From the IMG/VR virus record IMGVR_UViG_3300042934_001067, positions 62,001 through 126,000 of that record: a DNA stretch of 64,000 bases; one strand, given 5' to 3'. Origin of the DNA: a virus. Shown in pieces: positions 5,122 through 46,901 of the stretch; position 1 is the first letter of the stretch, and each line of letters opens with the position of its first letter. Made by a program: the position numbers and the translations under genes. The notes beneath the pieces were generated by a model. It was not told where the DNA came from. It made no database searches and worked only from the letters and a program-made list of their open reading frames with translations.

Positions 5122-5151
5122 ACCCTAATGCATATCGATGTGCATTGGAAG
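5122..5151 (-). promoter_or_regulatory. Palindromic promoter copy 2
   Basis: Minus-strand -10 TAGGGT (5122-5127). Palindrome TGCATATCGATGTGCA at 5129-5144 on the plus strand; -35-like CTTCCA (5146-5151), spacer 18. It drives the gene starting at 5077, 45 bases away. Confidence 0.85.
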
Positions 5152-6805: not shown

Positions 6806-7594
6806 CTACTGCCACTCGGCGGGGGCAAGCCGCCTCACGACGTTCAGCGGGTGCTCGCTCTTGTACTCGTCGCCGCTGTAGCCGATGGCGAACGGGCCCG
6901 TCGGCTCCACGATGTACACGTGGCCCCCGCTCTGGCGGGCGTAGGCGGCGGCGACGTCCAGGCGGGTGGTGAAGTGGACGTAGCGGCTCTTGGGCCCCTC
7001 GTCGCCCCACGGGTTGGTACGGCGCCCGGCGGTGAGCTGTGCACCCTCACGGAGCCGTCGGCCACCCCCGTGGTACAGCGGGCCCTCGACGGTGAATTCC
7101 CGCTCCACGTACCCGGTGTCCCTGTAGGTCTGCGCGGTGTAGGTGTACGTCGTGGGCGTGTCGGCGGGCTTGGGCGGCTCGATGGCGTCGGCGTCCCGGT
7201 GGGGCTTGTAGCCGCACTGCGGGCACCCGGCCCCCTGGCATTCCTGGCACCTCTTGGCGAGGATCTCTGCCACGTGCCCGGGGTCGGCGCGCTTGCGGTT
7301 CTTCAGGGAGTCCAGGTGGCCCCTGGCGGGCTTGGTGTACCGGCGCACGCTGCGCGACCCCCAGTCGGCGCGGCGCAGCACGGCCACGGTGCCCCTGGGG
7401 GTGTCGTCGTCGCACCACACGCGCACCGTCTTGGCGGTCACGGCGGTCACACGGCCGGTGCGCTCATAGATGCCACGCCCGCCGTAACCGGTCTCCCTGG
7501 TGAGGAATCGCAGGGTGTCACCCTCGGCGACGTCATCGAACGCCACGGCGTCCCACCCCTTCACGCGGGGATCGTCAGGACTGATGAGCGTCAC
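6806..7594 (-). CDS. Fusion protein with C-terminal Arr-like ADP-ribosyltransferase domain
   Basis: 262 residues in three parts. Residues 1-95 are a beta-barrel-like module (DDVAEGDTLRF, GRVTAVTAKTVRVWC). C116, C119, C124 and C127 form a zinc knuckle (CQECQGAGCPQC). Residues ~170-262 match the layout of rifampin ADP-ribosyltransferase (Arr): YHGGG near 174, YVHFTTRLDVAAAYA, and the hallmark YIVEPTGPF at 227-235. Free-standing Arr proteins are ~140 residues, so this is a shortened Arr core fused to a DNA- or protein-binding front. It could modify a host protein rather than an antibiotic. GTGA-coupled to the preceding gene. Confidence 0.7.
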   Translation of the reverse strand: MTLISPDDPRVKGWDAVAFDDVAEGDTLRFLTRETGYGGRGIYERTGRVTAVTAKTVRVWCDDDTPRGTVAVLRRADWGSRSVRRYTKPARGHLDSLKNRKRADPGHVAEILAKRCQECQGAGCPQCGYKPHRDADAIEPPKPADTPTTYTYTAQTYRDTGYVEREFTVEGPLYHGGGRRLREGAQLTAGRRTNPWGDEGPKSRYVHFTTRLDVAAAYARQSGGHVYIVEPTGPFAIGYSGDEYKSEHPLNVVRRLAPAEWQ

Positions 7595-7929
7595 TTGCTC
7601 CCCCTGGGCTTGAAGCGGTCGGCGACGGCCCAGCGCAGTTCGCGCATGGCCTCACGCTTGTTCGGGATCCGGTCGCCGTAGTTGCGTCCGCACGTGACCA
7701 CCCAGCCGGAGAAATCGGCACCCTCGTAGCGGTAGTGGCGCGTTGCCTCGGCGATCACCTCCACCTCGTACGGGAGGTCACGGTGAAGGATCTTGTCGAG
7801 TGCTTCGGCGGGGTCGACGGCGGGGTCGGACACCCACACGGCGGTCACGATCTTCCCTCCGGCGCTCTCGACGTACGCGACGTTGGCGGCGTCGTACGGG
7901 CGGCGGGCGGGCGTGTCGGCGGTGCTCAC
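7591..7929 (-). CDS. Hypothetical protein
   Basis: 112 residues, GTG start in a GTGA overlap with the upstream gene. The alpha/beta pattern (KIVTAVWVSDPAVDPAEALDKIL, YEVEVIAEATRHYRYEG) suggests a small compact domain; no family recognised. Coupled on both sides, so it should be made together with the Arr-like fusion protein. Confidence 0.7.
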   Translation of the reverse strand: MSTADTPARRPYDAANVAYVESAGGKIVTAVWVSDPAVDPAEALDKILHRDLPYEVEVIAEATRHYRYEGADFSGWVVTCGRNYGDRIPNKREAMRELRWAVADRFKPRGSK

Positions 7930-10101: not shown

Positions 10102-10131
10102 AAGCTAATGCACATCGATATGCATTGTCTA
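10102..10131 (-). promoter_or_regulatory. Palindromic promoter copy 3
   Basis: Minus-strand -35 TAGACA (10126-10131), 18-base spacer containing the palindrome (plus strand TGCACATCGATATGCA, 10109-10124), -10 TAGCTT (10102-10107). Start codon 38 bases from the -10. One of the best-formed copies. Confidence 0.88.
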
Positions 10132-10194: not shown

Positions 10195-11379
10195 TCAGTC
10201 GGCGGGCATCGTGGTCTTCCACCCCTCGACGATGCGCACGCGGCGGCCGTACTTGCGGCGCAGCATGTCTCGCAGCGACGCGAGACCGGTACCGTAGCCG
10301 ATCGCGGGGGCGCCGTTCACGGCGTATTCGTAGGTCCAGCGCCACGCCGGGCCGGGGCGGGCGACTTCCGGGTACAGCCTGGAGCGCGTGATCAGAACGG
10401 CGGGCGTGCCGTCGGCGGCCGGGCCGGGCGGCGCCGGGCACGTTCCCGTGGAGTGCCGAGTGACCCACTCACCCTCGACGTGGACCCGCTCTCCCTTCTC
10501 GGCCGCCACCAGGACGCCGCAGCGCACACACTCCCCCTCGAACCTGTTCCCCTGGGCCGGGCGCCCCGCCTGCGGCTGCTGGGGCTCCTCGGCGGCCGGG
10601 CGCTCCTGGCACTCACCGGGCTTGTGCTGAACGGTCCAGCGGCCGTCAACACGCTCGCGCTCACCCTCGCCCGCTTCGACCAGGGCGCCGCAGTTGCGGC
10701 ACTCGCCCGCGTAGCGGTTGGCGGGGAGCGGCTTGGGTGCGGGGGCGGGCTTGGGCTCCTCGGCCTTGACCGGACGGGGCTTGCGCACGGGTGGGGCCGG
10801 GGGCTCCTCGCCTTCCAGCCATGCGCCCTTGTAACGGCGGGCGATCGCGCGGCGTGCTTCCTCACGGGCGGCCTGCGCCTCGGGGCCGCCGACGGCGTGA
10901 GCGCGAATCGTGTAGATGGTGTGGAACGCGCCTTTGGCCCAGTAGGCGGGGTGGTCGGACGACTCCGACGTCCAGGACTTGCCGTCCTCGAACGTGATCG
11001 CAGCGCGCACGCACGGAACGTCGACGTACTTGTCGTCCTCGACGCCGCGCCCGGTGAACTCCGTCACCTCCACCGTGGCCACCGTGCGCCATGCTGCCTT
11101 GTAGTCCCACGGCTTGTTGCCGCTCACTCCGCCGTGCGCCTGCGACATGATGCGCATGCCGGGCTTGATGTCCCGGACGGCCACGGTCGCGGCGGAGTCG
11201 GCGAGCGCCTTTTCGTACGCTTCGAACGCGGTGCGCCCCCGGCGGGAAAGGCGGACCTTCTTGCCGGAGCAGCTCCAGCACACGTTGCCGTCACGCTCGT
11301 TGTAGGAGTACCGGCCGGTACCGCCGCAACGGCCGCAGGGCTCTTCATCGAAATGGATCTTGACGATGGTTACGGTCAC
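10195..11379 (-). CDS. Modular zinc protein: DnaJ-type zinc finger plus two tandem zinc ribbons
   Basis: 394 residues, GTG start with GAGGAG upstream. The N-terminus has CGRCGGTG and CWSCSG, the CxxCxGxG pattern of DnaJ-type zinc fingers (~15-40). Next is a barrel-like module opened by RDIKPGMRIMSQA (~70-165). After a Pro/Lys hinge come two similar ribbons: CRNCGALVEAGEGE...GRWTVQHKPGEC and CVRCGVLVAAEKGE...GEWVTRHSTGTC. The C-terminal ~70 residues include a small alpha/beta domain (GLASLRDMLRRKYGRRVRI). Related ribbons occur in the 13.5 kb gene. Likely nucleic-acid or protein binding; no catalytic site seen. Confidence 0.78.
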   Translation of the reverse strand: MTVTIVKIHFDEEPCGRCGGTGRYSYNERDGNVCWSCSGKKVRLSRRGRTAFEAYEKALADSAATVAVRDIKPGMRIMSQAHGGVSGNKPWDYKAAWRTVATVEVTEFTGRGVEDDKYVDVPCVRAAITFEDGKSWTSESSDHPAYWAKGAFHTIYTIRAHAVGGPEAQAAREEARRAIARRYKGAWLEGEEPPAPPVRKPRPVKAEEPKPAPAPKPLPANRYAGECRNCGALVEAGEGERERVDGRWTVQHKPGECQERPAAEEPQQPQAGRPAQGNRFEGECVRCGVLVAAEKGERVHVEGEWVTRHSTGTCPAPPGPAADGTPAVLITRSRLYPEVARPGPAWRWTYEYAVNGAPAIGYGTGLASLRDMLRRKYGRRVRIVEGWKTTMPAD

Positions 11380-11417
11380 CGTGTGCTCCTCGTGCTGTCG
11401 TCCTCGGCGGGACCGCC

Positions 11418-11447
11418 AGACTAATGCATATGGATGTGCATTGAAAG
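11418..11447 (-). promoter_or_regulatory. Palindromic promoter copy 4
   Basis: Minus-strand -35-like CTTTCA (11442-11447), spacer 18 with palindrome (plus strand TGCATATGGATGTGCA, 11425-11440), -10 TAGTCT (11418-11423). Drives the gene starting at 11379. Confidence 0.85.
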
Positions 11448-11472
11448 CCTGTTGGGGAAGATCTTCGACGCA

Positions 11473-11513
11473 CAGCACCCGGGGCGGGCCGACCGCTCCC
11501 GCCCCGGGTGCTG
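11473..11513. terminator. Terminator hairpin
   Basis: CAGCACCCGGGGCGGG pairs with CCCGCCCCGGGTGCTG, a perfect 16-bp stem, immediately after the leftward gene ending at 11520. Confidence 0.8.
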
Positions 11514-11519
11514 GCACCC

Positions 11520-14904: not shown

Positions 14905-15651
14905 CTACTCGGCGAGCAGCTCGGCGCGGACGTACGCCCAGTTGATCGCGTCGAAGCCTTCGGAGGCGTCGCGGCCGTCGGCGGCCTCGCTCAAACTGTC
15001 CCGAATCAGGGCGATGGTGTGGCGGTCGTCGGCCGAACGGTGGGCGCGGGGGCCGAAGACCACCGGGCGGAGGTGGTCGCGCAACTCGTCCTCACCGGCG
15101 CGCGCAGCGTTGCGGGCGTCCTCAATGAACGTTCCGTCGTTGGTGATCCACACGGCAACCGAGTGCGTGGCGAAGTTCTGGCCGTCGTACGGGCCGCCCT
15201 CGACGCGGCGCGGCGTAGCGGCCTGGTGGCGGTTGGCCAGGCGGAAGGCGGCGCGACGGACCTCAATGGGGAGGGACTCGTCGTTGATCTTGGCCCTGTT
15301 GGCCTCGACCTTTTCAGGGGTGGAGAGAATCGGCCGCTCGACGCACAGCAGGTCACCGCACCGGAGCAGGTCCGTGGAGCCGTCGGCGTAGAACACCTCG
15401 GCCGTGCCGGGGTCGGCGTCCTTGGCCCACTCAACGCGGATGATGTCCTTGAACTTGTCCAGGTGGCCGTGAGCGTCCTGGCCCCGTCCGCTCTCGGGCT
15501 TGCGGGCAGTACCGGCCGCAGTGCGGGTGATCATGTGGGGGATCCTGTCGGCGTCCACGCCCTTGAGGCCGTCGATACGCAGGTGTCCGGGGGCGGTGTT
15601 GCCGCTGGCGGCAACGGCCTCGGCGGGGGTCAGGTAGTCGAAGATGCTCAC
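14905..15651 (-). CDS. Hypothetical protein
   Basis: 248 residues, GTG start (VSIFDYLTPAEAV) with GAGGAGAACACCC upstream. The N-terminal half is alpha/beta with CGDLLCVERPIL near residue 100. The C-terminal half is helical (RRAAFRLANRHQAATPRR) with a WAYVRAELLAE end. It contains YDGQNFATHSVAVWI, which reads like a barrel strand pair. No recognised family. It is flanked on both sides by the tRNA-like elements. Confidence 0.7.
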   Translation of the reverse strand: MSIFDYLTPAEAVAASGNTAPGHLRIDGLKGVDADRIPHMITRTAAGTARKPESGRGQDAHGHLDKFKDIIRVEWAKDADPGTAEVFYADGSTDLLRCGDLLCVERPILSTPEKVEANRAKINDESLPIEVRRAAFRLANRHQAATPRRVEGGPYDGQNFATHSVAVWITNDGTFIEDARNAARAGEDELRDHLRPVVFGPRAHRSADDRHTIALIRDSLSEAADGRDASEGFDAINWAYVRAELLAE

Positions 15652-15676
15652 GGGTGTTCTCCTCGGTAGGCGGGAT

Positions 15677-15747
15677 GGTGGGGAGCGCCCCGGTCGGGCA
15701 TCGAACCCGGCTCGGGCCGCCCCGCCCGTGTGGGCGGGGCCGGGGCC
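15677..15747 (-). other. tRNA-like intergenic element 2
   Basis: Minus strand: stem GCCCCGG/CCGGGGC, inner hairpin CCCCGCCC/GGGCGGGG, T-arm-like GGG-TTCGATG-CCC, end GCTCCCCACCA. Same plan and same outer stem as the element near 14.85 kb, but different inner bases, so the stems seem to covary. Lies between two leftward genes, just before a GAGGAG ribosome site. Confidence 0.45.
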
Positions 15748-15752
15748 GTCTG

Positions 15753-16379
15753 TCAGTCGTCGTGGTCGGCCATGGCGTACTCGTCGAAGCGGTCGGCGCC
15801 GAACAGCGTGCGCAGGCCCTCGGCCATCTTCACGTTTTCGCTGTAGGTCTCGCGGGGCATCCAGTTGGCGGGGTCCGTGGCGAAGTCGCTCGCCCAGTCC
15901 TCGAAGTTGTCGGCGTAGTAGGCGGTCGCCGACTGGCGGACCAGCATGCCCACGGTCTCGACCAGCTCCGGCGCGTCGCCCTCCTCGCCGCCGTGCTTGA
16001 CGGTCTGGGTGTAGGTGCGGCCGTCGTAGGCAAGCGTGACGCGGTACTCGCGGTGCACCCAGCCCTCGGCGTCGGCGCCCATGGCGATCAGCTCGGAGGT
16101 AAGGGTGACACCGTCGCGGCGCAGCAGCAGGGACAGGGGGAGGTCGGAAACCTTGCCGCCGATCTGACCGTCGGCCGGGTACTGCTCGCGGGTCCACTCG
16201 TCGCAGGCGGCCTCGAACGCCTCCTGGGTGCGCTCGATGGCGGGTCCCTGGGTCCTGCCGTCGTCGCTGATGTGCCAGACGTTGACGACCGCGCCGGTGT
16301 TGGTGCTGATGTACTCGCCGCCGTCCCAGGTGAAGGTGAGGCCGGTGCGGTACTGCGGGGTGTAGATGAAGGCGGGCAT
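15753..16379 (-). CDS. Hypothetical protein
   Basis: 208 residues. The N-terminus is beta-rich with aromatics (FIYTPQYRTGLTFTWDGG). The C-terminal third is acidic and helical (NFEDWASDFATDPANWMPRE, EGLRTLFGADRFDEYA). No cysteine ribbon. ATG with CGAGGAG upstream; transcribed from palindromic promoter copy 6. The net acidic, aromatic character is compatible with a DNA-mimic type protein, but that is only a possibility. Confidence 0.72.
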   Translation of the reverse strand: MPAFIYTPQYRTGLTFTWDGGEYISTNTGAVVNVWHISDDGRTQGPAIERTQEAFEAACDEWTREQYPADGQIGGKVSDLPLSLLLRRDGVTLTSELIAMGADAEGWVHREYRVTLAYDGRTYTQTVKHGGEEGDAPELVETVGMLVRQSATAYYADNFEDWASDFATDPANWMPRETYSENVKMAEGLRTLFGADRFDEYAMADHDD

Positions 16380-22976: not shown

Positions 22977-23461
22977 CGGAGACGTGGACGGTCTACCTGG
23001 AGGCCGGTGCCGAGGTCACCGACGACGAGGTGAAGCGCATCGGTGACCTGCTGGAGGAGGAGGCGCCCGGGGCCGTAATGGCCCCGGCGCCGGTCCTCGG
23101 CTGCCGGTTCGTCCTCGACGACGAGCCGCTGCCGTCGCGGGCCCTGGTGGCCGCGCAGAGCCTGTTCGTAACGGCGGTCCGCAAGGCACTGCGGACCCGG
23201 CGGGTGGCCGAGGAGTGGGACGACGTCACGATCACCCGGGCCGAGCTGGCCTTGGGCGCCGACCCGGGCTGGGTGCCCCGGGGACTGATCACGCACCGGG
23301 GGCTGGCCGCCCGGTGCGGGTTCAGCGAGACGTACGTCCGGCGCCTGATGCACTACAAGGGGGCTCCGGAGCCGGTCGCCGTCGAGGGCGGCGACCGGGC
23401 GGCCATCTACGACACGGAGTCGGCGGTGCGGCACCTGGAGCGGATCAGAGCGAAGGCGTAG
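22973..23461 (+). CDS. Putative helix-turn-helix DNA-binding protein
   Basis: 162 residues, GTG start in a GTGA overlap. The N-terminal 90 residues form an acidic alpha/beta segment. The C-terminal ~55 residues read as a helix-turn-helix with wing: HRGLAARCGFSETYVRRLMH then a strand-like stretch and ESAVRHLERIRAKA. This resembles excisionase/MerR-type single HTH units. It may regulate the divergent region or assist recombination. Its 3' end overlaps the convergent ATPase gene by 17 bases. Confidence 0.7.
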   Translation: MTETWTVYLEAGAEVTDDEVKRIGDLLEEEAPGAVMAPAPVLGCRFVLDDEPLPSRALVAAQSLFVTAVRKALRTRRVAEEWDDVTITRAELALGADPGWVPRGLITHRGLAARCGFSETYVRRLMHYKGAPEPVAVEGGDRAAIYDTESAVRHLERIRAKA

Positions 23462-24008
23462 CCGACGCGGCCCAGGAGGCCACGCGGGGGCGGCAGTAGT
23501 CTCCCTGCGTGGCCTCCTGGCCGTCCAGGGGCCAGCTGCACCAGATGACCTTGCCGTTGAAGAACGGGCCGTGGTCGACCCCGGCGGCCGTGGCCATGTG
23601 GGCGACCAGGAGCAGGCCCCGGCCGCGTTCGCTGTCCTCGGGCAGGTTCATGAGCATCTCGGGGGCTCTGAACCGGTCGGGGAGTTCGGGGATGTGGTCG
23701 CGGTCGCGGTCGTGGACGCCGATCCGCAGCCAGCGGCACCGGGCGCCGACGATGGCGCTGGTGACGTGGAAACGAGGACGCTCGCGGACGTCGCATGCGT
23801 GCCGGACGACGTTGGTCGACAGCTCCGATAAGCACAACAGGGCGGCCTCGGTGATTTCCTCGTCGAGGCCGCCCTGTTTCGCCCGGTGGCTGAAGTCGTC
23901 CCTGACGACGGCGATACTGTGCTCATCGGTGTCGTAGACGTGGCGGTAGACCAGGCTGCGGAGCGATCCCAGTGGCGGTCTGGGCGCCTGGTGGTGCGGG
24001 GAGTGCAT
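23445..24008 (-). CDS. RsbW/SpoIIAB-type ATP-binding anti-sigma-like protein
   Basis: 187 residues with a GHKL ATPase fold: N-box ELSTNVVRHA (residues ~65-74), a G1-like HDRDRD/PELPDRF stretch, and a G2-like ERGRGLLLVAHMA. Proteins of this family in Streptomyces bind ATP and act as anti-sigma factors or serine kinases; many small ones accompany DUF397/XRE regulators, as here. The extreme N- and C-termini are unlike the family and may be variable. Divergent from the XRE gene at 24230. Confidence 0.8.
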   Translation of the reverse strand: MHSPHHQAPRPPLGSLRSLVYRHVYDTDEHSIAVVRDDFSHRAKQGGLDEEITEAALLCLSELSTNVVRHACDVRERPRFHVTSAIVGARCRWLRIGVHDRDRDHIPELPDRFRAPEMLMNLPEDSERGRGLLLVAHMATAAGVDHGPFFNGKVIWCSWPLDGQEATQGDYCRPRVASWAASATPSL

Positions 24009-30255: not shown

Positions 30256-30851
30256 CCGGACAGATCAAGGAATACGGCCTGGTCGAGGGACACCAGCAGG
30301 ACGAGCGCCTGGTCGTCGCCACTGACGCTTCCGTCAACGACACTCACGTGGCGATCGCCTATGTCAGCAGCCAGGGCCACTACGGCATGCGCGCTCACCC
30401 TTACTCCCTGCACCTTATGAGCGGCAAGCACCGCTCGACCGTCAACGAGTTGCGAGCGGTCATGGACGCTCTGGAGAACCTCGTAGATGAGACCGACCGC
30501 AAGCCGATCCGCGTGCTGACCGACAGCGAAGACGCCCTGAGCTACCTGACCAGGTGGAAGGAGGGCGAGGAGGACATGCCGCCTGGATACTCGCTGCGCT
30601 CACGGTCCCAGGGAGGAGTTGCCACCCTGGTCGCTCTGCAGCGCAAGGTGCGCCGCCTCCAGGAACTCAGCTTCCGCCTCGTCCTCGGTCACACCGGCCA
30701 TCCGCTCAACGAGACCGCCGACTCGCTCGCCAAGCTCGGCCTGCGGTACAGCACGGGCAAGGTCAAGGGGGACGTCGTCCGACGGCATGCTCCGCAGTGG
30801 GCCGCCCTCGCGGTCGGCGACTTCAGCCGCTACACAGCGGAGACCATGTGA
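30252..30851 (+). CDS. RNase HI-like protein
   Basis: 199 residues. The RNase H carboxylate set is present: D25 in ATDAS, E66 in NELRAV, D91 in TDSEDAL, and D157 in NETADSLA after GHTGHPLN. It would cut RNA in RNA-DNA hybrids, for example removing primers or R-loops. Family enzymes are ~150 residues; the extra C-terminal ~40 residues (TGKVKGDVVRRHAPQWAALA) are unassigned. GTG start, GTGA-coupled upstream, and overlapping the recombinase start downstream. Could also be a degenerate RNase H used only for binding, but the catalytic residues look intact. Confidence 0.85.
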   Translation: MTGQIKEYGLVEGHQQDERLVVATDASVNDTHVAIAYVSSQGHYGMRAHPYSLHLMSGKHRSTVNELRAVMDALENLVDETDRKPIRVLTDSEDALSYLTRWKEGEEDMPPGYSLRSRSQGGVATLVALQRKVRRLQELSFRLVLGHTGHPLNETADSLAKLGLRYSTGKVKGDVVRRHAPQWAALAVGDFSRYTAETM

Positions 30852-31834
30852 ACCCTCAGCCCGTCAGCACAGTGACCACCGACCTTGTCGTTGCTCCGTC
30901 TGCCCTGCCTCTCCTGCATGCGGACGCTGCCCGCGTCCGAGCCACTTGCGAGGAGATCAGGCGGCAGTGGCTGGTGGAACTCAAGAACGCCCACACTCAG
31001 CGGGCCTACGGAAGGTGCGCCGGGAACTGGTTCGACTGGTGCTTCGACAACATGGTCAGCCCGCTGGCCGCCCGCCGCTACCACTCCGCACGGTGGTCGG
31101 CCGACCTGCAGGAGGTCCTCGGTGCCTCGGCGGTGAACCAGGCCCTCTCGGCCATGAACTCCTGGTACGAGTTCGGCCTGGACGAGTACCCGCAGGCGTT
31201 CGAGATCGAGCACACGCCGTGGCGCAGGAAGCACCGGGTCGACGTCTCCGACGAGTCGCAGACGCTCGGCCTGGACAAGGAGGAGGCCCAGCGCCTGCGG
31301 GCGATGAGCTGGGAGTACGGGGCGGTCGACGCGGCCGTGGTCGAGGTGCTGCTGGGCATGGGCCTGCGGTCGGCCGAGCTGGAAGCGGCGAACGTGGCCA
31401 GCTACGGCGGCGCGCGCGGCCACCGGACTCTGAAGATCGTCCGCAAGCGCACGAAGAAGCAGACCCTCGTCGTGCCGCCGGACGCGGCCCGCGCGCTGGA
31501 CGAGCACCTCGCGCGGCGGCCCGGCCGCCGCGACGACGACGCCCTGGTGCTGTGCGCCGATGGCAAGCGGCTGACCAACCGGCGCATCGCTGGCATCGTC
31601 CAGCGCTGCTGCAGGGCCGCCCGCATCGACAAGGCGCTCTCCCCGCACGGCCTGCGCCACACCTGCGCCACGCTGATGCTCGACGCGAAGGTGCCCCTGC
31701 GGAAGGTGCAGCGGTTCCTCGGTCACGCCGACCCTCGGACGACGAACCGCTATGACCTGGCCCGGCACGACCTGGACGGCTCACCGGTGTATGACCTCGC
31801 CGAGTTCCTCAGTGGAAAAGCATTGAACGCCTGA
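30848..31834 (+). CDS. Tyrosine recombinase/integrase
   Basis: 328 residues, GTG start overlapping the RNase H stop. The N-terminal SAM-like core-binding domain spans ~30-125. The catalytic domain has R174 (GMGLRSAEL), Lys near 203, H267-x-x-R270 (SPHGLRHT), H293 (FLGHADPRTT) and nucleophile Y302. Complete active site, so likely functional. It could integrate the element, resolve dimers or act on the inverted repeat near 35.9 kb. No attachment site is obvious next to it. Confidence 0.9.
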   Translation: MNPQPVSTVTTDLVVAPSALPLLHADAARVRATCEEIRRQWLVELKNAHTQRAYGRCAGNWFDWCFDNMVSPLAARRYHSARWSADLQEVLGASAVNQALSAMNSWYEFGLDEYPQAFEIEHTPWRRKHRVDVSDESQTLGLDKEEAQRLRAMSWEYGAVDAAVVEVLLGMGLRSAELEAANVASYGGARGHRTLKIVRKRTKKQTLVVPPDAARALDEHLARRPGRRDDDALVLCADGKRLTNRRIAGIVQRCCRAARIDKALSPHGLRHTCATLMLDAKVPLRKVQRFLGHADPRTTNRYDLARHDLDGSPVYDLAEFLSGKALNA

Positions 31835-42473: not shown

Positions 42474-44417
42474 TTACAGCGTGGCGGGTGTGCTGGGGCG
42501 GCCGAAGAGTCTGGCCGGGTGGCGGGTGCCGCCGATGAAGGTGACGACTTCCTCGGCGTCCCAGTGGTGCTCGTCCAGGCGCGGCATGAAGCGGTGGTGC
42601 TGGCCGACGTAGGCGAGGGTGAGGTGCGGAGTCCAGCCGTGTTCGGAGGGCAGGCGGTAGCCGTGGCCTTCGAGGTAGGCGGCGAGGCTGGAGTGCATCT
42701 GGGCGCCGCTGGGGATGTCGGCCGCCGCCCACAGGACGTGCTCGCCCTTGAAGGCGTTGTTGAAGGTGCCGATGCCGCCGATGCGGACGTGGACGGGCTT
42801 GTGGCGGGCGGCCCAGGCGCCGACGACCTGCGGGAGCAGCTGGAGCTGCTCGCGGGTGTAGTCGGTGGTGTTGCCGAGGTAGGCGAGGGTGACGTGGAGC
42901 TGGTCGGCGGGCTGGCCGTCCTCGCGGGCCAGCTGTTCAGCGACCTCGCGCGGCGGCACGAGCGCCACCATCACGCCCTCGTCGTGGAGGACGGCTGCCG
43001 CCTGCCGCTGCAGGAACTGCTGCTCGGCCGCCGTGGCCTGGACAGCGGCGGTGTGGTGGGTCGGCTCGGTCCACCCGTCGTCCGGCCCGTGGACGGCGGG
43101 GTGCTCGATGTGGGGTCCGTTGTAGCCCCACTCGTTGATGTCGTTGCCGTCGGTGTGGACGTGCTTGGCTGGGACGGTGGCCTTCAGTACGGGCCAGTCC
43201 TTGGAGGGGTCGTCCGAGTGCATGCCGTGTTCTAGGGCGTACTGGGAGGAGGTGGAGACCCAGTCGCCGGTGCGGATGCTGGTGGTGCCGTGGGGGACGG
43301 ACCGGTAGATCGTGACCGGCGCCTCGGGATTGCCCTTGGCGCGGTGGACGGCCTTCAGCGACTCCTCGTGCGGCTCTCCGATCTCGCCCCAGTCGGGGTT
43401 GTCCAGCCCTTCCTGGTTGAACGCTCCGCCGTCGCCGTTGGGGCGGGTGGGGTCGTGCAGTGGAGCGTGTTCGGGTCCAGGCGCGCGGTGCTGCATCCGG
43501 TAGTCGTCGTCCATGGACGCAGTCTCCTGCAGGCCAGTCTCGCGGAAGTAGTCTGTCAGGCTGGAGAGTCGGTTGATGGCCTTGTCGTAGTCGTGGAGGC
43601 CGACGTAGCCGATGTGGAGGGTGCCGTCGTCCAGGTCGCGGTGGATGACGCGATGGCCGCGCGAGGCCTTGGTGGAGTTCCAGCCCTTGAGCTTCAGGGT
43701 CAAGGCGTGAGTCTGCAGCCCCTCGTCGCCACGTTGCAGGGCATTGATGGTGCTGGCCACGCGCTTGCGGCTGTCGCCGTCGAGCTTGAGCAGCTCCTTC
43801 TTCGCGGACGGGTGGAAGGAGACCTGGCGCGGGCCTACAGGCCCAGCTCCTCCTTGATCGGCTCCCACGGCAGGTGCTGCTCCTGCGGGGTCTTCGCCCG
43901 CTCCTGCAGCTCCGTCTCCAGCTCCGGGCTGACGGCGTGGCCGTCCTCGTCCTGCGGTTCGGGTGCTGTCGGCTCCATTTCGCTCCTTCCGGAAGTGCGC
44001 CGTGGCGGTGTGCGAGGGCTTCCAGCCCTCGTGGTCGTCCAGGCCCTGTTCGTCGCTCAGGTAGTCGGGCGACCACCGAACTGGCACGTGTGAGAGGCCA
44101 GCCTTGGCGGCGGCCCAGTAGCGGTGCGTGCCGTCGTTGATGTAGGGGGTCCCGTCCTGCTTCCTCCACAGGTGGATGGGGTGCTCGATGCCGCGCTGGC
44201 GGACGTCGTGCACGAGCGCGTGCAGGTGCTCGGGCTCGTAGCGGTCGTTCGCCATGTCGTCCGCGCTCCACTGCGCGACGTGCCCCATGGTGATCGGATT
44301 GCCGTGCTGGTCGCTGCCGTACTCGGAGTGCATGCGCGCTATGTCGTCCACGTGCATCATCTCGTCCGGCTGATGGGCTGCCGTACGGAAGAACGCGGTG
44401 GCGCTGTGCTCGGTCAT
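42474..44417 (-). CDS. Composite ORF: ParB-like nuclease, RelE-like, ADP-ribosyltransferase and 2H phosphoesterase domains
   Basis: 647 codons in one frame. Residues 1-20 carry SATAFFRTAA. ParB-like nuclease ~55-120 with NDGTHR at 94-99. Residues ~150-190 are a low-complexity stretch where an antitoxin-like gene is read in another frame. RelE-like toxin ~197-285 (VSFHPSAKKELLKL, RGHRVIHRDL). ART-like domain ~366-440 (IYRSVP, WVSTSSQYA, NEWGY). 2H phosphoesterase ~480-640 with HVT (508) and HLT (598). Internal starts with good RBS exist at 43868 (GTG, toxin) and 43514 (ATG, ART-2H), so it may encode several products. ATGA overlap with the GNAT gene. Confidence 0.8.
   Translation of the reverse strand: MTEHSATAFFRTAAHQPDEMMHVDDIARMHSEYGSDQHGNPITMGHVAQWSADDMANDRYEPEHLHALVHDVRQRGIEHPIHLWRKQDGTPYINDGTHRYWAAAKAGLSHVPVRWSPDYLSDEQGLDDHEGWKPSHTATAHFRKERNGADSTRTAGRGRPRRQPGAGDGAAGAGEDPAGAAPAVGADQGGAGPVGPRQVSFHPSAKKELLKLDGDSRKRVASTINALQRGDEGLQTHALTLKLKGWNSTKASRGHRVIHRDLDDGTLHIGYVGLHDYDKAINRLSSLTDYFRETGLQETASMDDDYRMQHRAPGPEHAPLHDPTRPNGDGGAFNQEGLDNPDWGEIGEPHEESLKAVHRAKGNPEAPVTIYRSVPHGTTSIRTGDWVSTSSQYALEHGMHSDDPSKDWPVLKATVPAKHVHTDGNDINEWGYNGPHIEHPAVHGPDDGWTEPTHHTAAVQATAAEQQFLQRQAAAVLHDEGVMVALVPPREVAEQLAREDGQPADQLHVTLAYLGNTTDYTREQLQLLPQVVGAWAARHKPVHVRIGGIGTFNNAFKGEHVLWAAADIPSGAQMHSSLAAYLEGHGYRLPSEHGWTPHLTLAYVGQHHRFMPRLDEHHWDAEEVVTFIGGTRHPARLFGRPSTPATL
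43835..43978 (-). CDS. Antitoxin-like small protein in an alternative frame
   Basis: 47 residues, MEPTAPEPQDEDG... ending HLPWEPIKEELGL, the type of C-terminus seen in RelB/VapB-like antitoxins. ATG with GGAAGGAG at ideal spacing. It overlaps the composite ORF out of frame, immediately before the RelE-like segment. A GTG start for the toxin at 43868, with its own AGGAG, lies within it. Coding sense is far better in this frame than in the composite frame, so a nested toxin-antitoxin pair is likely. Confidence 0.68.
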   Translation of the reverse strand: MEPTAPEPQDEDGHAVSPELETELQERAKTPQEQHLPWEPIKEELGL

Positions 44418-46639
44418 GCGGCCTTCTCCTGGTCCGTGGCGGCGGCCACGCCCGCGTGGGCGTGCTTCCAGTCAATCAGCTGCTGCAACGGCTGGTCAGG
44501 GGCCTTGTCGAGGGCTTTCCAGACTGCGTTGCTGGGGTCGTAGAGGCCCGTTCCTTCGGGGCCGAATGCGCTGTGGCGGTCAGCGTGGAGGTAATCGTAC
44601 AACGCTGCACCTTCCCTTTCGCGCACTCCGTCAGGAAGTTCCCGGACGGCCCCGATCAGTTTCTGCAGCGCCTCGAACACGTCCCAGGTGGACTCGGGGA
44701 GTTTTTCGGGGCTGAAGTCGTCTGGCACTTCAACAGGTTTCACGGCCCATTCGTCGCGGGTGATGTCGTACGCGGCGTAGGGCTTTATGTCCCGTATGTC
44801 ATAGCTAGATGGGTTTACATACCAAGTATTCTCCCAGGGGCCGGTCTCCTTGCCGTCTGGGCCGGGGAGCATGCGGGCGTCGTCGTTGAGGCCGTGGCGC
44901 AGTTCGTCGGTGAGCTTCTCGTCCACGGCAGCCGGGGGCTCGCCGACGAAGGTGTCCACATGGTGGTTGAGGGCGTCGTGGTCGATGCCGATGAGGATGT
45001 CGAGGTCGCCGTTGCCGTAGAAGTGGCTGGCCTCGCTGCCTGCGAGGTAGACGCGGGCCCAGGACTGCCAGGAGTCACCGTACTTGGGCGCCCAGAAGCT
45101 GTTGAGCAGGCTGAGCAGGTGCTGGCGGACGATCGGGTGCATGCGCTCGTTCTCGTCGAACAGGCGCGGGTCCAGGCCCTTCTCCCCCGGCGCGAAGAAG
45201 TGGTCGCGGGGCAGCCAGTCGTGCTCGTGCTGGTAGGGCTCGTGGTTGTCGGGGACGGGGGTGGTGAAGGCCGTCCGCTCGCCGATCCCCTTCAGCCACG
45301 CCTGCGCGTCGTCGGAGAGCCGGTCGGAGTGCTGGAGGTCTGGGCGCTGCTCGCGCGCTCGTCGCAGCAGCTCGGTTGCGATACCTCGGCGCTGGTGTTC
45401 GTCCCTCACGTTCATGTTGCCGATGACGCCGTCGTCGCCCCAGTTGACGTACCCGGCCATGCTGCCCTCGGGGGTGCGCATGGTGACGGCCTTGGGTTCG
45501 GTGACCGTGTGGTAGGTGTGGCCGGTTTTGGAGGTGAAGTCGCCGTCAGCCCATTCCGGCCTCCCGGCCGAGGCGGTCTTTCCGTGGCCGCCGTCGGGAA
45601 GGCGGCCGTCGCAGGTGGCATCGTCGGGGCTGTTGGCGGGGACGGTGAGGCTGCCGTCGCAGTGGTAGCACTCGAAGCCGGTGTCGTGCTCGCCGGTGCC
45701 GCCACAGCAGGGGCAGGGCTTCGTGGCTGTGGCCATGCGGGGGTGGCCGGTGAGGTGGTATTCGGTGCGGGCGCTGTCGAGGTCGGCCTTGGGGATGGTC
45801 GGCTTGTCGACGGCGGTGAGTCCGATGTGACTGGGGTGGATGTCGGCGGGGACGTGTTCGCCTGCGGCGAGGGCGGGGTGGTCTTGGGGGACCTTTACGC
45901 CGGGACCGGGCAGGCCGTAGGCGCTGCGGCTGACGCGGAGGGGGACGTGGTCCATACCGAGGGCGCGGGCGGCGCGCAGGCGGTGGTTGCCCTCGCCCAG
46001 GTAGGCCTCGCCGCTGGCGGGGTGGTAGTGGAGCATGAGGGGTTCCATCTCGCCGCTGGCGGCAAGGTGGTGGCCGACTGCCTTGGCGTGCTCGGGGTCG
46101 GTTTCCTGGCTGGCATAGCGCTCGACTTCGTGGCGGGGGACCATTTCGACGTTGGTCCAGTTGCCGACGCGGGCGCGGATGTGGTGGCCGTGGGGGTTGA
46201 GGAGGCGGGAGGGGACGTCGTCGCCGTCCTGGACGGCCGCCGTGGCGGTGGCTGTGGCCATGGTGCGCCCCCGAGTGACCTTCTTGCCGTCGGTGTAGCC
46301 CGCCCACCACGCCTTGCCTGCGTCGGTGCGGTCGCCGTGGTCGATGGGGGTGGCGGGGTGGCGGCGCTGCATCTCGTCCATGAGGGCGGAGCCGACGCCC
46401 TTGCGCTGGTGGGCCTCTTCGGTGCCGAGGTGCTCGATGAGGATCTTGTCGGCTTTGCGGCGGGGGACGTGGTAGGTGAGGGTGCCCATGCGGTCGCCGG
46501 AGCTGGGCTCGACGGCGTGCAGGTGGATCTTGGTGGGGCGTTTGGTGCCACCGGTGTCGACCTCTTCGTGTTCGAAGTCGATCCCCTGGGGGTCGGCCGC
46601 CGCCTGGCGGAAGAAGCTGGTCGCGCTGATGTCCGTCAC
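44414..46639 (-). CDS. Giant multidomain enzyme: GNAT - ParB-like - zinc - GNAT - nucleotidyltransferase
   Basis: 741 residues. N-terminal SATSFFRQAA mirrors the next gene. GNAT 1 ~40-115 (QRKGVGSALMDEM, then DRTDAGKAWW). ParB-like nuclease ~165-240 (GEGNHR at 215-220). DnaJ-type zinc finger at 309-327 (CPCCGGTG, CYHCDG). GNAT 2 ~365-455 (QRRGIATELLRRA, then SDRLSDDAQAWLKG). Nucleotidyltransferase-like core ~520-620 (AGSEAS, YGNGDLDI). The C-terminal tail is helical. Such fusions occur next to head genes of actinophages, where they may be packaged and injected. Downstream of terminase, ATGA-coupled to the composite ORF. Confidence 0.82.
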   Translation of the reverse strand: MTDISATSFFRQAAADPQGIDFEHEEVDTGGTKRPTKIHLHAVEPSSGDRMGTLTYHVPRRKADKILIEHLGTEEAHQRKGVGSALMDEMQRRHPATPIDHGDRTDAGKAWWAGYTDGKKVTRGRTMATATATAAVQDGDDVPSRLLNPHGHHIRARVGNWTNVEMVPRHEVERYASQETDPEHAKAVGHHLAASGEMEPLMLHYHPASGEAYLGEGNHRLRAARALGMDHVPLRVSRSAYGLPGPGVKVPQDHPALAAGEHVPADIHPSHIGLTAVDKPTIPKADLDSARTEYHLTGHPRMATATKPCPCCGGTGEHDTGFECYHCDGSLTVPANSPDDATCDGRLPDGGHGKTASAGRPEWADGDFTSKTGHTYHTVTEPKAVTMRTPEGSMAGYVNWGDDGVIGNMNVRDEHQRRGIATELLRRAREQRPDLQHSDRLSDDAQAWLKGIGERTAFTTPVPDNHEPYQHEHDWLPRDHFFAPGEKGLDPRLFDENERMHPIVRQHLLSLLNSFWAPKYGDSWQSWARVYLAGSEASHFYGNGDLDILIGIDHDALNHHVDTFVGEPPAAVDEKLTDELRHGLNDDARMLPGPDGKETGPWENTWYVNPSSYDIRDIKPYAAYDITRDEWAVKPVEVPDDFSPEKLPESTWDVFEALQKLIGAVRELPDGVREREGAALYDYLHADRHSAFGPEGTGLYDPSNAVWKALDKAPDQPLQQLIDWKHAHAGVAAATDQEKAA

Positions 46640-46901
46640 CTGGCACCTCCAGTCCTTGGTGCTGAAGGTGGGGGTGCAGACACAGATGAGCGGACCTCCC
46701 GGTGGTACCTGGCCGGGAGGCCCGCTGGGTCATCGTGGGACGTTTTAAGTGGGGTGATCCCGCCAAGAACGACCCTCACGCCTGAGCCGACCTTGCGGTC
46801 TGTCGCTGCAGGTACGCCGCTGGCTGCATGCAGCAGCCCTATCCACGAGACAGGGCCATCGTGCCACGCGTTTTTGGGTTCGGCAAGAACGCCTTTCCTG
46901 G
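46640..46901. other. Gap between terminase and GNAT fusion
   Basis: Holds the terminator described at 46690 and then mostly unstructured sequence, with the AT-rich stretch ttttaagt near 46744 that could serve a promoter for the downstream GNAT gene. No convincing gene. Confidence 0.5.
46690..46725. terminator. Terminator hairpin after terminase
   Basis: GCGGACCTCCCGG pairs with CCGGGAGGCCCGC with one mismatch; separates terminase transcription from the giant enzyme genes. Confidence 0.65.

What the first reader, a model, noticed from the sequence alone, without database searches (positions are those of the whole stretch)
6806..7594. Arr-like ADP-ribosyltransferase fused to a zinc/barrel front end
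YHGGG and YIVEPTGPF fit the rifampin ADP-ribosyltransferase (Arr) core, but the domain is truncated and joined to a module shared with neighbouring element proteins. This suggests recruitment of Arr for modification of a host protein, perhaps RNA polymerase, or an anti-host effector.
Basis: partly seen in the sequence, partly recalled or inferred. Interest (0 to 1): 0.68.

Follow-up and report, generated by a model that had tools for sequence, protein, structure and literature searches.

The report
Rewired Arr-like enzyme in a phage
A large Streptomyces virus carries a relative of the enzyme that inactivates the antibiotic rifampin, but the drug-binding parts and two of three active-site residues are gone while close relatives sit in probable virus-particle proteins, so it more likely acts on the infected cell than on the drug.

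Summary
The ORF is real: minus strand, 7594..6806, 262 aa, GTG start overlapping the upstream stop. Its C-terminal ~115 residues are a true homologue of rifampin ADP-ribosyltransferase Arr (Pfam Arr-ms over its curated cut-off; profile-profile E 7e-20). The window lies in a 156-kb, contractile-tailed, integrase-bearing phage record; a sister contig lies in Streptomyces sp. MH60.

It is not an ordinary Arr. Of the Arr triad H19-Y49-D84 it has H-H-G. HGT is HGG. Rifampin site 1 is deleted and site 2 absent. Relatives form one supported clade with stepwise states (H-Y-D, H-H-D, H-H-G) and an invariant new acid (E243) on the later strand, where most ARTs carry theirs. dN/dS is about 0.4.

Members are small genes in some phages (including Frankenweenie gp344) and, in others, domains of 840-1900-aa polyvalent-type proteins, some beside terminase, portal or tail genes. 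A host-directed effector is the best reading; target and catalysis are untested.

The front end (small barrel, plus a CxxC knuckle found only here) is not shared with the window's neighbours; other Streptomyces phages carry it fused to a homologue of the gene next door. Foldseek was inconclusive for the Arr part; the AlphaFold model there is confident (pLDDT 93-96).

The parts
6806..7594 (-). 262-aa gene: barrel + CxxC knuckle + Arr-like domain; GTG start overlaps the stop of the upstream gene (GTGA)
   Evidence: ORF; Pfam; AlphaFold model
6809..7162 (-). Arr-like ADP-ribosyltransferase module, residues 145-262, with the clade-specific N-terminal beta-hairpin (149-170) before strand 1
   Evidence: predicted pLDDT 93-96 over most of it
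7367..7555 (-). small beta-barrel front end, about residues 14-76
   Evidence: only weak, non-significant SH3/KOW-like fold matches
7214..7249 (-). CxxCxGxGCPxC cysteine knuckle, residues 116-127 (C116, C119, C124, C127)
   Evidence: absent from L010, L009, L017 and L012 relatives
7070..7072 (-). H175, equivalent of Arr H19 (NAD-binding His)
   Evidence: invariant in all phage relatives aligned
6974..6976 (-). H207, at the position of Arr Y49
6881..6883 (-). G238, at the position of the Arr catalytic D84
6866..6868 (-). E243, clade-invariant acid (E or D) where Arr has Ser99; candidate replacement catalytic acid
   Evidence: 12 of 12 clade members acidic, 0 of 7 arr; role inferred
6995..7018 (-). 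TNPWGDEG, residues 193-200, clade-specific insertion (W196 and D198 invariant; absent from arr)
7591..7929 (-). upstream overlapping 112-aa gene; its homologue is fused to the same barrel in Streptomyces phage TurkishDelight gp119 and plasmid pS1D4-14.2
5479..10064 (-). probable operon holding the gene (10064-8673, 8600-8235, 8225-7926, 7929-7591, 7594-6806, then downstream genes to 5479)
   Evidence: gene spacing and overlaps, bounded by two copies of the 21-mer below; inferred
10106..10126 (.). near-palindromic 21-mer TAATGCAYATSGATRTGCATT, 42 nt upstream of the first gene of this operon
   Evidence: 8 sites in the window, 0 expected
5126..5146 (.). next copy of the 21-mer, marking the start of the following operon

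Best explanation
The gene encodes a divergent, retooled member of the Arr branch of ADP-ribosyltransferases, used by a large temperate contractile-tailed Streptomyces phage as an effector inside the infected cell. Shown: homology to Arr; loss of both rifampin-binding elements and of two of the three triad residues; purifying selection; a clade in which the same domain is either a small phage gene or part of a very large multidomain protein. Inferred: NAD is still bound through H175; catalysis, if kept, uses H207 and the clade-invariant acid E243 on the later strand (the place where most ARTs carry their glutamate) instead of D84; the substrate is a host macromolecule rather than rifampin; the barrel and cysteine knuckle help to dock on that partner or on nucleic acid. 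Deployment resembles the T4 pattern, with one version entering with the virion (as Alt does) and one made in the cell (as ModA and ModB are).
For: Arr homology both ways. Triad and drug-site losses against published conservation of HGT, Y and D84 in all tested Arr proteins (PMC8492726). Clade of 13 rows with support 100/99, holding states H-Y-D, H-H-D and H-H-G with an invariant acid at E243. dN/dS 0.40-0.44 against four relatives. Relatives inside ORFs of 838-1901 aa: L011, with a terminase-like ORF upstream (one 75-aa ORF between); L021, which also holds ART-PolyVal and lies directly before the portal gene; L020, directly after a minor tail protein. Several Arr-like domains per phage (5 in G004, 4 in G005, 4 in G013). 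No macrodomain in seven of eight records searched and no partner gene shared by all loci, so no sign of a toxin-antitoxin pair.
Against: No activity, expression or target is shown. With Y49 and D84 replaced the protein may not transfer ADP-ribose at all. The model coordinates could not be superposed on 2HW2, so the placing of E243 is inferred from sequence. Foldseek with the full-length model listed no ART among its 50 best hits in either library. Virion packaging of the relatives rests on architecture and position only.
Confidence: 0.5

Rival explanations
1. Pseudo-enzyme: the Arr fold is kept as a binding module (for RNA polymerase, NAD or an ADP-ribosylated partner) without transferase activity.
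For: Y49 to H, D84 to G, HGT to HGG. M. smegmatis Arr has catalysis-independent effects and co-precipitates with RNAP beta even as H18A or D83A mutants (PMC3138739).
Against: H175, the acid at 243 and the clade-specific TNPWGDEG and K245 are kept across phages, which fits an active site better than a bare scaffold.
Confidence: 0.25
2. Small-molecule enzyme: it inactivates a rifamycin or another antibiotic for the lysogen, as proposed for phage-borne Arr in PMC9503650.
For: Arr homology; the published interpretation for phage Arr; rifamycin-class compounds come from actinomycetes (general knowledge).
Against: Both rifampin-binding sites are missing and the catalytic Asp is Gly; near relatives lie inside very large multidomain phage proteins.
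Confidence: 0.12
3. RNA or nucleotide enzyme: the H-H-(non-acid) configuration has converged on that of Tpt1/KptA (H-H-V), acting on phosphate ends or on NAD-derived signals of host defence.
For: Triad H-H-G against H-H-V in Tpt1 (PMC7827354); the record also encodes a 2H phosphoesterase-like domain beside TerL.
Against: No Tpt1 domain hit; the acid at 243 has no role in that scheme; members of the same clade keep H-Y-D.
Confidence: 0.08
4. Toxin or superinfection-exclusion gene of the prophage acting on competing phages.
For: Temperate phage record with an integrase; ARTs are common in such systems (general knowledge).
Against: No conserved partner gene, no PADLOC hit for the gene or six genes near it.
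Confidence: 0.05

Closest known systems
Arr, rifampin ADP-ribosyltransferase (PF12120; Arr-ms 2HW2, ARR-2 9IBA)
   Same: Homologous domain: strand-1 HG, strand (V-Y/H-F-T), helix, VEPTG strand, Y-K/R-S strand in the same order; 35% identity in the profile-profile alignment
   Different: H-H-G instead of H-Y-D; HGG instead of HGT; rifampin site 1 deleted and site 2 absent; TNPWGDEG insertion; extra N-terminal hairpin; new invariant acid at 243; fused barrel and knuckle
Phage-borne rifampin-ART family noted in PMC9503650 (Microbacterium and Gordonia phages, PBC5)
   Same: Arr-family ARTs in actinobacterial phages
   Different: There read as antibiotic-modifying; here a clade lacking the drug-site features, with members inside large multidomain proteins. 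Whether those published phages hold the same clade was not established: tblastn in the phage collection found only Frankenweenie for this clade
ARTs of polyvalent phage proteins (Tox-ART-HYD2, ART-PolyVal; PMC5512222)
   Same: Multi-domain proteins of large phages, with effector domains thought to enter with the DNA; L021 carries both ART-PolyVal and an Arr-like domain
   Different: Different ART family (H-Y-D with the D on strand 5); the word rifampin does not occur in that paper; the window gene is a small stand-alone gene
T4 Alt / ModA / ModB
   Same: Logic of virion-borne plus cell-made ARTs acting on the host
   Different: R-S-E class, a different branch of the ART superfamily from Arr; target includes RNAP there, unknown here
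Streptomyces phage Frankenweenie gp344 (WGV36015.1)
   Same: Stand-alone member of the same H-H-G subclade, 66% identical over residues 161-262
   Different: No front end; annotated as hypothetical

Membership tests
Arr, rifampin ADP-ribosyltransferase | Pfam Arr-ms domain above its curated cut-off | tested here: met
   29.6 bits against 25, E 8.1e-7, but only profile positions 1-66 of 99
Arr, rifampin ADP-ribosyltransferase | NCBIfam rifampin_ARR equivalog cut-off (130 bits) | tested here: not met
   25.3 bits
Arr, rifampin ADP-ribosyltransferase | NAD-binding HGT motif | tested here: not met
   HGG: His and Gly kept, Thr lost
Arr, rifampin ADP-ribosyltransferase | Y49 (100% in tested Arr, PMC8492726) | tested here: not met
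   H207
Arr, rifampin ADP-ribosyltransferase | catalytic D84 (100% in tested Arr, PMC8492726) | tested here: not met
   G238
Arr, rifampin ADP-ribosyltransferase | RIF-binding sites 1 (87-95) and 2 (126-133) | tested here: not met
   site 1 loop gapped out and protein ends before site 2 in the alignment
Arr, rifampin ADP-ribosyltransferase | modifies rifampin | not testable with these tools
   needs in vitro assay
ADP-ribosyltransferase superfamily (Arr branch) | sequence homology to an ART of known structure | tested here: met
   ARR-2 1.1e-10 and 2HW2 2.7e-7 with the family profile; hhalign E 6.8e-20
ADP-ribosyltransferase superfamily (Arr branch) | ART fold | tested here: inconclusive
   Confident model with the expected strand order, but no ART among the 50 Foldseek hits shown; the isolated domain was not searched
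Polyvalent phage proteins | large multi-domain protein with effector domains, encoded with late genes | tested here: not met
   The window gene is 262 aa in an operon of small genes away from the late genes; but relatives in L011, L021, L022 and L037 fit this description
Toxin-antitoxin pair | conserved adjacent partner | tested here: not met
   No gene adjacent to the Arr gene is shared across window, L009, L010, L017, L018 and Frankenweenie
Tpt1/KptA | RNA lobe with Arg-His-Arg-Arg tetrad | tested here: not met
   No Tpt1 domain hit in Pfam or NCBIfam

The most novel reading that the evidence does not exclude
A phage-specific clade of the Arr branch in which the catalytic acid has moved from the fourth strand (D84) to a later strand (E/D243), with a change of Tyr to His along the way, turning an antibiotic-modifying enzyme fold into a macromolecule-directed effector that some phages carry in the virion and others make in the cell.
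Probability: 0.3. Interest if true: 0.72.

Novelty: new variant of a known kind. Interest (0 to 1): 0.5.

Why it matters
Arr is known almost only as a drug-resistance enzyme, though a role outside rifampin was found in mycobacteria. A phage clade that drops the drug sites, changes the triad stepwise (H-Y-D, H-H-D, H-H-G kept in living relatives) and appears inside very large multidomain phage proteins would give Arr a host-directed role and a natural series for testing how ARTs change chemistry and substrate. It is also a warning: annotation by Arr similarity would call these genes rifampin resistance when the features needed for it are absent.

Tried and rejected
Foldseek with the full-length model, PDB and viral libraries: no hit at E <= 0.001 and no ART among the 50 shown; the barrel and long multi-domain alignments dominate. 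The front-end model alone gave only weak small-barrel matches (best E 0.03; L21e, L2, MazF and the like). A 16-row alignment that mixed front-end and Arr fragments misaligned and was dropped. Front end shared with neighbours: rejected. Rifampin resistance: rejected on features. Macrodomain partner: none in this record; only Frankenweenie has one. PADLOC: no hits. PF18760 search of the own record found nothing, but its controls did not ring either, so it says nothing. Papers on the Arr structure (PMC2290778) and the ART classification (PMC6126934) are not held, so the Arr residue roles come from PMC3138739, PMC8492726 and PMC7827354. One tree leaves open whether H-H-G arose once or twice.

Full report
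What the window is. The window is bases 62001-126000 of a 156,276-base virus record. The record encodes a portal, major head protein, tail sheath and terminase large subunit, a DNA polymerase III alpha subunit and a tyrosine integrase: a large temperate phage with a contractile tail. A sister contig of 156,949 bases is part of the assembly of Streptomyces sp. MH60, so the host is most likely a Streptomyces (inference).

The observation. The ORF at 7594..6806 on the minus strand has 262 codons, starts with GTG, and overlaps the stop of the upstream gene by four bases (sequence). Codon-position G+C is like that of its neighbours. Residues 173-236 match Pfam Arr-ms at E 8.1e-7, above the curated cut-off, while the NCBI equivalog model for rifampin ARTs gives 25 bits against a cut-off of 130. 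So it is an Arr relative but not an Arr equivalog.

Homology is firm. A profile of twelve relatives finds ARR-2 and Arr-ms as the only significant chains in the PDB. Profile-profile comparison with Streptomyces Arr proteins gives E 6.8e-20. A profile of five close phage relatives finds the ordinary 139-aa arr genes in Streptomyces genomes: 33 of 394 genomes matched, of which one (the MH60 assembly) matched through the phage contig itself.

It is not a rifampin enzyme by its parts. Published work reports that all tested Arr proteins keep HGT, Tyr (Y49 of Arr-ms) and D84, and names two rifampin sites, 87-95 and 126-133 (PMC8492726); H18, Y48 and D83 of M. smegmatis Arr are each needed for resistance (PMC3138739). 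In the window protein HGT is HGG, Tyr is H207, Asp is G238, the first rifampin site falls in a gap and the chain ends before the second.

A clade with steps. Scans of viral contigs, a bacterial genome collection and named phages gave about a dozen close relatives. On a maximum-likelihood tree thirteen rows form one clade (support 100/99). Within it some members are H-Y-D (L018, L019, L020, L023), one is H-H-D (L021), and eight are H-H-G (window, L009, L010, L017, Frankenweenie gp344, L011, L022, L037). Inside the clade Gly at D84 was seen only where Tyr is already His. All twelve clade rows tabulated share an acid at position 243, where the canonical Arr rows have Ser, and W196, D198, Y218 and K245. 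In most ARTs the catalytic Glu sits on the fifth strand, whereas Arr uses an Asp on the fourth (PMC7827354). The hypothesis is that the clade gained an acid on the later strand and could then lose D84. Whether H-H-G arose once or twice is open. dN/dS of 0.40-0.44 against four relatives says the module is kept by selection.

Where relatives sit. In L009, L017, L018 and Frankenweenie the module is a small gene of its own, and in the window and L010 it is joined to the barrel. In L011, L019, L020, L021, L022, L023 and L037 it lies inside open frames of 838 to 1901 codons that hold other domains. In L021 the same protein matches ART-PolyVal and is followed directly by the portal gene; in L011 a terminase-like ORF lies upstream with one small ORF between; in L020 a minor tail protein gene lies directly before. 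Several of these records carry more than one Arr-like domain. This is the architecture called polyvalent, thought to enter the cell with phage DNA (PMC5512222); the ARTs described there belong to another family, and the word rifampin does not occur in that paper. Packaging is therefore inferred. The present record has a second, H-Y-D-type Arr-like domain, fused to a different N-terminal region, in its late gene cluster next to the tail sheath (L001).

The front end. AlphaFold predicts a small barrel in residues 27-74, a poorly predicted linker with a helix, and a confident Arr module; a second job on the front end alone agrees. A cysteine knuckle (C116, C119, C124, C127) lies between them. No homologous barrel was found elsewhere in this record. 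In phage TurkishDelight, in the 98.8-kb plasmid pS1D4-14.2 and in L048 and L049 the barrel is fused to a homologue of the window's next gene upstream, the 112-aa ORF at 7929..7591. In L010 the order is as in the window, without the knuckle, but the reading frame is broken by one extra G in a G run, which may be an assembly error. So the barrel and the 112-aa protein probably work together, and the Arr module was joined to that pair.

How it probably works. The phage makes the protein from an operon of small genes; the same 21-base near-palindrome precedes this and other leftward operons. H175 would hold NAD; H207 and E243 would serve in place of Y49 and D84; barrel and knuckle would bring the enzyme to its target. 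The first clause rests on gene position, the rest on inference. The alternative that it only binds, without catalysis, is kept at 0.25, encouraged by the catalysis-independent role of Arr in M. smegmatis and its association with RNAP (PMC3138739).

Verdict. A new variant of a known kind: an Arr-branch ART with a changed active site and without drug-binding parts. The 2022 survey of viral NAD systems lists phage Arr proteins and reads them as antibiotic-modifying, while allowing for a role against compounds of antiviral immunity (PMC9503650). The combination of a changed triad, lost drug sites and presence in polyvalent-type proteins was not found in the papers searched here, which are open-access only.

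Noticed in passing
window 3241, 5126, 10106, 11422, 13298, 16426, 17901, 41600: Near-palindromic 21-mer TAATGCAYATSGATRTGCATT in one polarity, about 40-50 nt before the first start codon of leftward operons where measured; 8 sites, 0 expected in shuffles; one more at record 58497, and in the MH60 sister contig (L009 1248, 3448, 4763, 8084, 9698). Looks like a phage operator or promoter.
   Followed up: partly
L001 1465-2169 (record 15427-16134, minus strand): Second Arr-like domain of the same phage, H-Y-D type, fused to a different N-terminal region and lying in the late gene cluster by the tail sheath; the MH60 contig has a near-identical copy (L064).
   Followed up: partly
window 44414-46639 and 42474-44417, minus strand: Two large proteins directly after the terminase gene, one with two GNAT-type matches and one with ParB-like and 2H phosphoesterase-like matches: polyvalent-type effectors of this phage.
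   Followed up: partly
window 7591-7929, minus strand: 112-aa protein of no known family, fused to the barrel in TurkishDelight gp119 and plasmid pS1D4-14.2, overlapping the Arr gene here and in L010.
   Followed up: partly
L010 5986-6613: The fused homologue is split between two reading frames by one extra G in a G run (CCCCCAGGGGG against CCCCCAGGGG): assembly error or real frameshift.
   Followed up: no
window 20000-41600: Region with many rightward genes, an integrase (30554-31834) and an anti-sigma-like ATPase (23445-24008): probable lysogeny or integrative module inside the phage.
   Followed up: no
L026 (one 1853-aa open frame), L022 and its neighbours: Phage proteins with several Arr-like domains in one chain, beside ParB-like and other domains.
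   Followed up: no
window 10195-11517 (minus strand) and 44417-46729 (minus strand): Further CxxCxGxG cysteine knuckles; the first gives a sub-threshold Anti-TRAP match (23.7 bits against 32).
   Followed up: no
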